Shown here: piece after piece, positions 54,811-57,536 of the stretch
How the letters are laid out: the number at the start of each line of letters is the position of its first letter
Position numbering within the stretch: position 1 is the stretch's first letter
Source of the DNA: Candidatus Methanoperedens sp.
Lineage (GTDB): Archaea; Halobacteriota; Methanosarcinia; Methanosarcinales; Methanoperedenaceae
Assembly (NCBI GenBank): GCA_027460525.1
Contig: JAPZAS010000006.1
Span: 1 to 64,000 of the forward strand
DNA: 64,000 bases
Direction: 5' to 3'
Notes under the pieces: model-generated
The model's input: only the letters and a program-made list of their open reading frames with translations
The model's database searches: none
Told to the model about the DNA's origin: nothing
Program-made: the position numbers and the translations under genes

Positions 54811-55152
54811 ATGAACATCTATCTCTATATCGCACTTTTCGGTTTTGCAGCAATTATTTTCCTGACGCTTCGCGATATTCGCATCTTCCATCGCACTAAA
54901 ATTGAATCATACAGGAAAGGCGCGATGCGCGGCATGGTTGCGGGGGTGCTTGCTTGGGTGGGCATGCTTGTTACTGCGGCAAATCCTGAAAATCCATTGA
55001 TCGGGCTTACCATAGTGCTTGTTGCTGTTTATATCAATGGAAAAGGCAAACGTGAGGATGTGTTCGGGGATGCGCCTTTGATTAAGAGGGTGCTTGGGGA
55101 GACTAAAGTTAAAAATAAGTATGCGTTTTTTGCTGATCATGGTAAGATCTAA
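54811..55152 (+). CDS. Small membrane protein after HARP
   Basis: 113 aa with three hydrophobic segments (IYLYIALFGFAAIIFLTL, GMVAGVLAWVGMLVT, PLIGLTIVLVAVYIN) and a basic/acidic tail. The start lies one base after the HARP stop, hence cotranscribed. No family recognised; the topology resembles small archaeal membrane proteins of unknown role. Confidence 0.7.
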   Translation: MNIYLYIALFGFAAIIFLTLRDIRIFHRTKIESYRKGAMRGMVAGVLAWVGMLVTAANPENPLIGLTIVLVAVYINGKGKREDVFGDAPLIKRVLGETKVKNKYAFFADHGKI

Positions 55153-55426
55153 ACCTCTATCATTTTCCTGAACTGAGCCGCTGGGTCTTTTTTCTCTCTG
55201 ATTTTTTCTGCAATCATGTCCTTTTTCTCAGTGAAATGATATGGACGTATAATTTGTGAAAAAATAGTTTTCTTAGAGATTAAAACAACGGATTCATTAT
55301 GTTATAGTGAAGTCCGGAGCAATATAACAATAAATTTTAAATACTATCTCATCATGTAAAGATATGGGTGAGGTGCGAGTAGTTACTAGGACGAAATACA
55401 TCGAACCAACTTAAAGGGAGGATATT

Positions 55427-56014
55427 ATGGCTGGTACAGAAGGACAGGAATTATCAAATATAAATTTTGAATCAATGATTGGCGGCCCGTTGAACGCCGT
55501 CATCAAAGCTCAAGCACAATCTGCACAAACATCGGTCGATTTCATCAAGAGTGTTGGATTCAATGCGACGGATCCCGATAAAGGTAAGCCAACGATGGTT
55601 ACATTTGAATACGACAAAATTATTGACACGAAAGATCCCGCTACTGGGGTTATTACCTCCACGCCGACACCGATGAAACTGACTGTGCCGATTCTCACGA
55701 TGCTTCCTATTCCCTTCATAAGGGTCGAAGAAGTAACGATTGACTTTAACGCGAAGATTAATTCTGTTGTGGAGTCGACAACGGCATCATCATCGGAATT
55801 AAACGCATCTCTGGCGGTAAAAGGTGGATGGGGGCCCGTGTCAGCAGAGTTGAAATGCAGTTACAGCAATAAGAAATCTTCATCTGCAACAGATAAAACG
55901 GAACGGACTTACAGCATGACCATTCATGTTCGTGCAGTGCAGGATGAGCTTCCAGCTGGGATGGAAAAGCTCTTGGGTATTCTCGAGAATAACATCAAGG
56001 AAGTACCCGCGTAA
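55427..56014 (+). CDS. DUF2589 protein
   Basis: 195 aa. Distinctive DUF2589 features: ESMIGGPLNAVIKAQAQSAQ, a central MLPIPFIRVEEVTIDFNAKI, then SSELNASLAVKGGWGPVSAE, repeated Ser-rich strand, and a final VRAVQDELPAGMEKLLGILE. Mostly beta. The function of DUF2589 is unknown; it is sporadically distributed, suggesting horizontal spread. GGGAGG before ATG 55427; a TATA-like TTTTAAATAC lies about 90 bases upstream. First gene of a three-gene set. Confidence 0.85.
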   Translation: MAGTEGQELSNINFESMIGGPLNAVIKAQAQSAQTSVDFIKSVGFNATDPDKGKPTMVTFEYDKIIDTKDPATGVITSTPTPMKLTVPILTMLPIPFIRVEEVTIDFNAKINSVVESTTASSSELNASLAVKGGWGPVSAELKCSYSNKKSSSATDKTERTYSMTIHVRAVQDELPAGMEKLLGILENNIKEVPA

Positions 56015-56030
56015 TATAAAATTATAAGCA

Positions 56031-56068
56031 TGCAGGTAAAGGGCGTCGGAAGTTTCCCTTTACCTGCA
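56031..56068 (+). promoter_or_regulatory. 13-bp perfect stem-loop between cassette genes 1 and 2
   Basis: TGCAGGTAAAGGG pairs with CCCTTTACCTGCA around a 12-base loop. It sits between the stop of the DUF2589 gene and the GAGGAGG site of gene 2 (8 bases before that site). No U-tract, so it may be a translation-control or mRNA-processing element that sets the ratio of the two proteins. Confidence 0.6.
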
Positions 56069-56086
56069 TTCGTCAGAGGAGGCAAT

Positions 56087-56764
56087 ATGGCAGATTTGGG
56101 CGACCTTTTGGGATCAATGATGTCTGGATTAATTCGTGCACGTCGCATGGCTGATGAGCAAACTGCAGCGCTGGCAGAATACTACAAAAGCAACCCGCTT
56201 CTCGAAGGTTTGTCGGTTCCTCGCATCCGTATTCCTGAGTTGACAATTGAAATGCCCATGCTTATCGAGAATCAAGTGGAAGGACAAAGCGGGGAGATGG
56301 AAGATCCGGCAAAGATTGCAGATGCAGCAGAAGCACAACTGAAAACGACCTTGTCTAAGAACAATATCAAGATTAACCCAGCTTTCTATGAAGCGTTTTT
56401 AAATGAGGTAAAAAACCGGCTTGAGTTGGTGAAACAAACAGAAGCCCCTATCATGAAAGAAACCGTTGCGCGTAGTGTTCAAGATGCTTTTGCAGCCACT
56501 GTGACCAAAATGAAGACCACCTTGACTGCAACACACAAGGAAGCCATTGCAAGAGATCTTCGCGCCAGGGTATCAATAGTCGGCGTCGCCAAAGAGCCAG
56601 TGGCTTCAAGTATTGTGGCCAACATCAAAACGGCTGATGTTAAAGAACAGGCATCAAATACGACGGTTGTGCGCCTGAAAATCACACTGAAAGAAGAAGG
56701 TCTTGAATGGGCTACAAAGGCGAGCGAATCTGGAGGCGTAGTACGTACGTTACAGCCAGAATGA
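56087..56764 (+). CDS. DUF2589-associated protein, gene 2
   Basis: 225 aa. N-terminus MADLGDLLGSMMSGLIRARR, a segment PRIRIPELTIEMPMLIENQV that echoes the beta strand of DUF2589, a helical middle (about 85-150) and a C-terminal beta-rich ITLKEEGLEWATKASE. Probably a partner with a related fold. GAGGAGG before ATG 56087; the frame upstream to 56030 is excluded because it would run through the hairpin. Function unknown. Confidence 0.7.
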   Translation: MADLGDLLGSMMSGLIRARRMADEQTAALAEYYKSNPLLEGLSVPRIRIPELTIEMPMLIENQVEGQSGEMEDPAKIADAAEAQLKTTLSKNNIKINPAFYEAFLNEVKNRLELVKQTEAPIMKETVARSVQDAFAATVTKMKTTLTATHKEAIARDLRARVSIVGVAKEPVASSIVANIKTADVKEQASNTTVVRLKITLKEEGLEWATKASESGGVVRTLQPE

Positions 56765-56782
56765 TTGACGGAGCTACATAGG

Positions 56783-57358
56783 ATGCAATGTATTCTGCGG
56801 GAAAAACTCTTGACGCAAGCGATGAAACTCGCAGACGTCAGCAATATTTACCGTACCGAAAGCTCCAGTTTTGTGGATGCGTACCTCGCCTGGCTGGAAG
56901 AAGCTGAAAAGGACTTGTCAGGCTTACGATCACCCATCGTTATTCTGCTCCAGGCAGAAAAAAGTTCTGTGGCTTCAGTCTTGGACGGGTACCTGCCCAA
57001 TCAAATTCAAGCAGGAACCAGCATCAGAAAAAACCAGAAAGCCGTTGCAGCCCAATCGTTGGAAAAAGTTTCAAAAGAGATATATTCCAAAATAGAAAAT
57101 ATTGATCACAACCTTGATCAATTCAGCGAAAAATTATGTCACGCCATTGCAGTCTTGGCGAGCAAGGAACCTGATTTGTATAACAATCTTCAAGTAAATC
57201 AGCAAGGGGTAGACACCATATGGAAAATGCTTAGTAGAACACCAGAGACCATACCGATGTATAACTATTTTTGTGCAAAGCTTGCGTCTACAGACATAAA
57301 TTACCTGCTCATGGATATCATACAGAAAATTGAAAGCAATAAGACTGACGCCCTTTAA
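56783..57358 (+). CDS. DUF2589-associated protein, gene 3
   Basis: 191 aa, all helical, no membrane segment: LREKLLTQAMKLADVSNIYR, YLAWLEEAEKDLSGLRSPIV, KVSKEIYSKIENIDHNLDQF, then MLSRTPETIPMYNYFCAKLA. No family recognised. Starts 18 bases after gene 2 ends (ATG 56783, AGG upstream; a TTG at 56765 is possible). Its unbroken association with the two beta proteins suggests a complex or shell with a helical cargo or adaptor. Confidence 0.6.
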   Translation: MQCILREKLLTQAMKLADVSNIYRTESSSFVDAYLAWLEEAEKDLSGLRSPIVILLQAEKSSVASVLDGYLPNQIQAGTSIRKNQKAVAAQSLEKVSKEIYSKIENIDHNLDQFSEKLCHAIAVLASKEPDLYNNLQVNQQGVDTIWKMLSRTPETIPMYNYFCAKLASTDINYLLMDIIQKIESNKTDAL

Positions 57359-57536
57359 AAAAGCACGCATTCGTCGAAGAACATATGTGCTGACAAATAG
57401 GGCCAGTGACCATTTAATGGGGGTAATCAAAGACCTTTTTTTCAATTTTATAATATTTACTGTCCATCTTAACAATAACAAATAAGTTATCAGGTACACC
57501 AAAACTATTTCATTCCATAACAAGTAGAAAAGGGCA

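What the first reader, a model, noticed from the sequence alone, without database searches (positions are those of the whole stretch)
55427..57358. Three-gene DUF2589 cassette of unknown function
A DUF2589 protein, a second protein that shares a similar strand motif, and an all-helical third protein are arranged in one operon with strong ribosome-binding sites and a hairpin between genes 1 and 2. DUF2589 occurs patchily in bacteria and archaea without known role. Two beta-rich partners plus a helical protein suggest a structural assembly such as a compartment, a membrane-binding coat or a conflict system. Its genomic position between core genes implies acquisition.
Basis: partly seen in the sequence, partly recalled or inferred. 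Interest (0 to 1): 0.68.

Follow-up and report, generated by a model that had tools for sequence, protein, structure and literature searches.

The report
Mobile three-gene DUF2589 cassette
A methane-eating archaeon carries a compact three-gene unit of unknown function that it picked up as a block from bacteria; the same three genes travel together, in the same order, across many bacterial and archaeal phyla, and in some bacteria related units sit beside cell-wall-cutting enzymes, which hints at a job at the cell envelope.

Summary
Gene 1 is DUF2589; genes 2 and 3 have no family in Pfam, NCBIfam, PHROGs or PADLOC. Starts of genes 2 and 3 are corrected to 56087 and 56783, which puts the hairpin in the gene 1-2 spacer. 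The three genes form a conserved autonomous unit: in 80 related loci from many phyla the order is 1-2-3, apart from contig ends and two loci without gene 3, and no fourth gene is generally shared. In 296 Bacteroidota genomes every genome with gene 2 (12) or gene 3 (10) also has gene 1. The host is Candidatus Methanoperedens. In eight relatives the site before hisF is empty. The cassette nests in a bacterial clade, is 80-83% identical in DNA to three bacterial copies, and is under purifying selection: a recent transfer between domains. Gene 2 shares its strand motif with gene 1. A hairpin recurs in most gene 1-2 spacers and may keep gene 1 in excess. Five of 23 randomly drawn bacterial DUF2589 loci carry a mostly leaderless peptidoglycan hydrolase just downstream. 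My best guess is an envelope-acting hetero-oligomer (permeabilisation, lysis/release or delivery). Function is not shown.

The parts
55427..56014 (+). gene 1 (g1), DUF2589 protein, 195 aa: N-terminal helix 14-44, beta strands 57-168 with a low-confidence amphipathic hairpin (about 115-157), C-terminal helix 177-188
   Evidence: PF11655 E 6e-30; AlphaFold2 mean pLDDT 66, 115-157 below 50; start supported by alignment
56087..56764 (+). gene 2 (g2), 225 aa, no named family; long N-terminal helix, VPRIRIPE strand related to DUF2589, helical insert, C-terminal strands; start corrected from 56030
   Evidence: Conserved start and motifs in 65 sequences; hhalign to g1 E 2e-4; AlphaFold2 mean pLDDT 86
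56783..57358 (+). gene 3 (g3), 191 aa, conserved, probably all-helical, no named family; start corrected from TTG 56765
   Evidence: Alignment of 55 sequences; no Pfam family shared; profile finds it beside g2 in nearly all complete loci
56030..56069 (+). intercistronic hairpin between g1 and g2, 14-bp perfect stem (56030-56043 / 56056-56069), no T-run
   Evidence: compensatory changes in close relatives; stems of 10 bp or more in 37 of 64 g1-g2 spacers
55336..55343 (+). TATA-box-like TTTAAATA, probable archaeal promoter
   Evidence: Read from sequence; lies in a block shared with the two other Methanoperedens copies and not with bacterial copies
55416..55422 (+). Shine-Dalgarno GGGAGGA of g1
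56075..56082 (+). Shine-Dalgarno AGAGGAGG of g2
56770..56773 (+). Shine-Dalgarno GGAG of g3
55153..57495 (.). Approximate extent of the insertion relative to the empty site between the upstream small gene and hisF; no clear target-site duplication or terminal repeats
   Evidence: DNA similarity to the other Methanoperedens copies spans about 55337-57378

Best explanation
The three genes are a self-contained, horizontally moving cassette for a heteromeric protein assembly. Step 1 (shown): genes 1-2-3 are one evolutionary unit that moves between bacteria and archaea and is kept by purifying selection. Step 2 (inferred, about 0.65): the products form one complex in which g1 is the major subunit; g2 is a distant DUF2589-like partner that shares the helix and the VP-strand element, and g3 is a helical accessory. 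The hairpin after g1 probably protects or ends part of the transcript so that g1 is made in excess. Step 3 (inferred, about 0.35): the complex is made in the cytoplasm (no signal peptide or clear transmembrane helix) and works at the cell envelope as a membrane-permeabilising, lysis/release or delivery module. In bacteria some DUF2589 loci carry mostly leaderless peptidoglycan hydrolases just downstream, as a holin works with an endolysin. In Methanoperedens, an archaeon without peptidoglycan (general knowledge), only the membrane part would be needed.
For: Unit: 80 related loci with g1-g2-g3 in the same order and strand, except at contig ends and in two loci without g3; no other generally conserved neighbour. 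Co-occurrence in 296 Bacteroidota: g3 in 10 and g2 in 12 genomes, all within the 19 with DUF2589. Distances of the three proteins correlate, r 0.82-0.87, though relatedness is not controlled. Transfer: empty site in 8 relatives; g1 in 3 of 24 genus members including this one, at another place in the other two; nested in a bacterial clade; 80-83% DNA identity to three bacterial copies. dN/dS 0.08-0.35. g1-g2 kinship. Hairpin. PG hydrolases: 5 of 23 random bacterial loci (L211 Phage_lysozyme, L212 Amidase_3, L215 GH19, L225 CHAP, L217 endolysin), plus L037 muramidase, L040 amidase, L100 and L105 PG_binding_1. By hydropathy g1-g3 have no leader or clear TM helix, and the hydrolases look leaderless, L225 less clearly.
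Against: In the window and in most 1-2-3 loci no PG hydrolase is adjacent. Three of the five random hydrolase cases have a different architecture (DUF2589 tandems, not 1-2-3). The background rate of PG hydrolases was taken from general knowledge (about 1% of genes), not measured in these genomes, and the downstream genes were picked for scanning by eye. No transmembrane helix as in holins. The g1 model is poor exactly in the hairpin region, and no solved fold matches g1 or g2. Alternating hydrophobicity in the hairpin is also normal for soluble beta sheets. No expression or interaction data.
Confidence: 0.35

Rival explanations
1. Cytoplasmic structural body: g1 builds a filament, granule coat or scaffold, g2 caps or nucleates it and g3 is an adaptor; the PG hydrolases are incidental neighbours.
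For: Hairpin after g1 suggests a major subunit. All three lack signals for export. Broad host range and mostly housekeeping neighbours. A region of DUF2589-related genes, AF0414-AF0417, is up-regulated on lactate in Archaeoglobus fulgidus (PMC3949148), more like physiology than conflict.
Against: No sequence or fold match to any shell, coat or filament protein. Does not explain hydrolases in 5 of 23 random loci.
Confidence: 0.25
2. Conflict or defence module: a membrane-active complex that kills or lyses the cell on infection, or delivers PG-degrading effectors to rivals.
For: Mobile, patchy, exchanged between domains. Variable downstream enzymes of effector type. One phage-labelled contig (L037) and one viral contig with a recombinase-like gene (L239) hold a related cassette.
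Against: No PADLOC match for the proteins. Neighbours mostly housekeeping genes, defence genes scattered. No conserved secretion, sensor or immunity gene. Viral searches with the window's g1 found nothing.
Confidence: 0.2
3. Stress or metabolic accessory in anaerobes and aquatic bacteria (for example binding lipid or another small ligand), with co-inheritance due only to co-transcription.
For: Purifying selection; lactate-dependent expression in A. fulgidus; no obvious effector gene beside the cassette in the window.
Against: Three proteins kept together across phyla and moved as a block suggest a dedicated machine; no ligand-binding fold found.
Confidence: 0.2

Closest known systems
DUF2589 (PF11655), including the A. 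fulgidus AF0414-AF0417 region
   Same: g1 is a clear member (E 6e-30). Archaeoglobi-type loci also have several adjacent genes: two DUF2589 plus a short g2-like protein.
   Different: Archaeoglobi-type and haloarchaea-type loci have a second DUF2589 and other helix-plus-strand proteins in place of g2 and g3; g3 was not found there. No function is known for any.
Holin-endolysin lysis cassettes / type 10 secretion systems (e.g. Yersinia entomophaga, PMC10847048)
   Same: Works-like only: a proposed membrane-acting part next to leaderless PG hydrolases in some bacterial loci.
   Different: No transmembrane helices, and most 1-2-3 cassettes including the window have no hydrolase beside them.
Aerolysin-type beta-pore-forming proteins
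   Same: Ser/Thr-rich amphipathic beta hairpin in g1; best PDB profile match is an insecticidal protein, 7ml9, at E 0.47.
   Different: The match is not significant, g1 has no signal peptide, and it carries an N-terminal helix and constant partners.

Membership tests
DUF2589 (PF11655) | Match above the Pfam gathering score | tested here: met
   g1: 105 bits against a cut-off of 23
DUF2589 (PF11655) | g2 is a member | tested here: not met
   No Pfam hit for the window's g2; 1 of 65 relatives hits at E 0.002; the profile match of E 2e-4 supports distant kinship only
Holin / type 10 secretion system | Transmembrane helices in the membrane component | tested here: not met
   Highest 19-residue hydropathy 0.95-1.33 for g1-g3
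Holin / type 10 secretion system | PG hydrolase in the same operon | tested here: not met
   None in the window; present in a minority of bacterial loci
Aerolysin-type pore-forming protein | Significant sequence or fold match | tested here: not met
   Best E 0.47; no fold match (on a low-confidence model)
Known anti-phage defence system | Match to PADLOC models | tested here: not met
   No hits for g1-g3
Encapsulin, microcompartment or phage-tube structural protein | Significant fold match | tested here: inconclusive
   No match with E <= 0.001 for g1 or g2 in the PDB, but the g1 model is weak and g3 was not modelled

The most novel reading that the evidence does not exclude
DUF2589 cassettes are a new class of membrane-perforating or envelope-crossing machine built from soluble subunits (a major beta-hairpin subunit, a paralogous partner and a helical accessory), used by bacteria with endolysin-like enzymes for lysis, release or delivery, and passed to archaea as a unit.
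Probability: 0.2. Interest if true: 0.88.

Novelty: categorically new. Interest (0 to 1): 0.62.

Why it matters
Three genes, two of them without any family name, stay together across many bacterial and archaeal phyla and have recently crossed between domains at 80-83% DNA identity. That points to a self-contained function useful in very different cells. The cassette is small enough to express and solve directly, and the link to PG hydrolases gives a first testable idea. 'Categorically new' here means that no described system fits; the mechanism is not shown.

Tried and rejected
Searches against Pfam, NCBIfam, PADLOC and PHROGs gave no family for g2 or g3. PHROGs hits for five g1 relatives are probably due to low-complexity Ala/Pro inserts, not kinship (not checked residue by residue). 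Profile searches of PDB sequences were not significant. Foldseek with g2 and g1 gave nothing at E <= 0.001. Viral-contig scans with the window's g1 found nothing, so a viral origin is not favoured. Transposon ends or target duplications were looked for and not found. Defence-island context was tested and is weak. A minus-strand peptide remnant left of the cassette has no match in 29 relatives. No Rfam family covers the hairpin. MAG contamination was considered for the bacterial copies; their flanking genes look bacterial by inspection only (RluA-type, sigma-54 activator, SelA).

Full report
What is there. The window holds three adjacent plus-strand genes between a small gene (54811-55152) and hisF (57537). 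Gene 1 (55427-56014) is DUF2589, PF11655, E 6e-30, and is the only copy in the genome. Gene 2 should start at 56087 and gene 3 at 56783: these starts have Shine-Dalgarno sites and match the starts of relatives. Genes 2 and 3 have no family in Pfam, NCBIfam, PHROGs or PADLOC.

Conservation as a unit. A scan of one genome per species gave 80 loci with g1 relatives. Profiles built for each gene find g1-g2-g3 in the same order and strand in nearly all of them. The exceptions are contig ends (L048, L063, L065, L075) and two loci, L092 and L099, that lack g3; no g3 was found elsewhere in those two genomes. All-against-all clustering finds no fourth gene shared widely; the other recurring clusters come mostly from Kordia synteny. 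In a draw of 296 Bacteroidota genomes, DUF2589 is in 19, g2 in 12 and g3 in 10; all g2 and g3 genomes are among the 19. Four of the other seven have only the N-terminal helix of DUF2589 and three have tandem DUF2589 genes. DUF2589 is patchy: 24 of 393 genomes in the window's phylum, 9 of 398 in Pseudomonadota, 19 of 296 in Bacteroidota (each count includes the genome used as the centre of the draw).

Acquisition. The genus is Candidatus Methanoperedens, inferred from two same-genus genomes whose matches coincide with named records L044 and L073. Only 3 of the 24 genus members examined, counting this one, carry g1. In eight relatives the upstream gene is followed at short distance by hisF, an empty site. 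In the other two carriers the cassette sits elsewhere, at a place they share. A tree of the joined proteins puts the three Methanoperedens copies with a Geobacter copy inside a large, mostly bacterial clade (quick method). DNA identity is 80-85% to the two other Methanoperedens copies and 80-83% to Desulfuromonadaceae, KSB1 and an unclassified bacterium, ending near the cassette borders. dS is about 0.3-0.9 and dN/dS is 0.08-0.35. The three Methanoperedens copies share a block of about 90 bp upstream with a TATA-like box that the bacterial copies lack. I read this as entry from bacteria followed by movement within the genus. Other archaea (Methanothrix, Bathyarchaeota, Methanocellales) lie in a separate branch, also mixed with bacteria.

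Anatomy. g1: a long N-terminal helix, then beta strands, with residues 115-157 modelled at very low confidence, then a C-terminal helix (pLDDT 66). The strands at 120-131 and 137-149 alternate hydrophobic and polar residues on average over 75 sequences. That fits a membrane hairpin but also a soluble sheet. g2: a long N-terminal helix, one strand, a four-helix insert and C-terminal strands (pLDDT 86). The g2 motif LSVPRIRIPELTIEMPMLI aligns with g1 LPIPFIRVEEVTIDFNAKI (E 2e-4). No fold match was found for either. None of the three has a clear transmembrane helix or signal peptide by hydropathy.

The hairpin. In 37 of 64 spacers of 40 nt or more between genes 1 and 2 there is a stem of at least 10 bp, and 24 have z below -3; the gene 2-3 spacer is usually about 20 nt, longer in Kordia. 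Stem sequences differ between clades, and close relatives show compensatory changes. I infer a role in making more of gene 1 than of genes 2 and 3. This was not tested.

Context in bacteria. Randomly drawn DUF2589 loci were read with their neighbours. In 5 of 23 a PG hydrolase lies on the same strand within three genes downstream: lysozyme (L211), amidase_3 (L212), GH19 (L215), M15-type endolysin (L217, PHROG E 1e-25) and CHAP (L225, lack of a leader less clear). L211, L212 and L215 are DUF2589-tandem loci; L217 and L225 are 1-2-3 loci. Further cases from non-random sets are L037, L040, L100 and L105. With about 30 downstream genes examined and a background near 1% (general knowledge, not measured), fewer than one is expected. 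Nearest neighbours are otherwise mixed housekeeping genes, and defence genes are scattered.

Interpretation. The unit status and transfer are shown. That the three form one complex with g1 in excess is inferred. That it works at the envelope, like a holin with an endolysin or like a delivery module, is a guess supported by the hydrolase association. The analogy is to lysis cassettes that release proteins, such as the type 10 system of Yersinia entomophaga (PMC10847048). It is not a member of that kind: it lacks transmembrane helices, and the window has no hydrolase. The only paper in the library that mentions DUF2589 reports up-regulation of AF0414-AF0417 on lactate in A. fulgidus.

Noticed in passing
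window 55152-55247, minus strand: A short reading frame ending ...RPYHFTEKKDMIAEKIREKKDPAAQFRKMIEV* at the left edge of the insertion looks like a gene remnant; no match in 29 relatives.
   Followed up: partly
L127, between the upstream small gene and hisF: Another Methanoperedens relative has a different insert of about 0.55 kb at the same site, so the site may accept insertions repeatedly.
   Followed up: no
L159:8068-8361 and L160:8163-8489: Short proteins with a signal-peptide-like start followed only by the DUF2589 N-terminal helix.
   Followed up: no
L033, L034, L036, L211, L212: These DUF2589 loci share a small protein of about 90 aa (PKGxIIGxExxF...GEHQVxxQ...YHIGFxRKP) right after DUF2589; the two copies scanned have no PHROG family and the one scanned has no Pfam family.
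   Followed up: partly
L033, L034, L088, L233: Large toxin-like genes (TcdA/TcdB-type by annotation, Tc-type by eye) lie near some DUF2589 loci; named only, not studied.
   Followed up: no
L060, L061 and L070, directly after g3: A fourth gene of about 240 aa with its own helix-plus-strand start (LGDLCLSLADEFAVALVTVKRTHPNVRV), possibly another g2-like partner, in Desulfotignum and Geopsychrobacter.
   Followed up: partly
L239:3625-6129: A viral-collection contig carries a DUF2589 - g2-like - DUF2589 set next to a recombinase-like and a Bro-N-like gene (identified by eye).
   Followed up: partly
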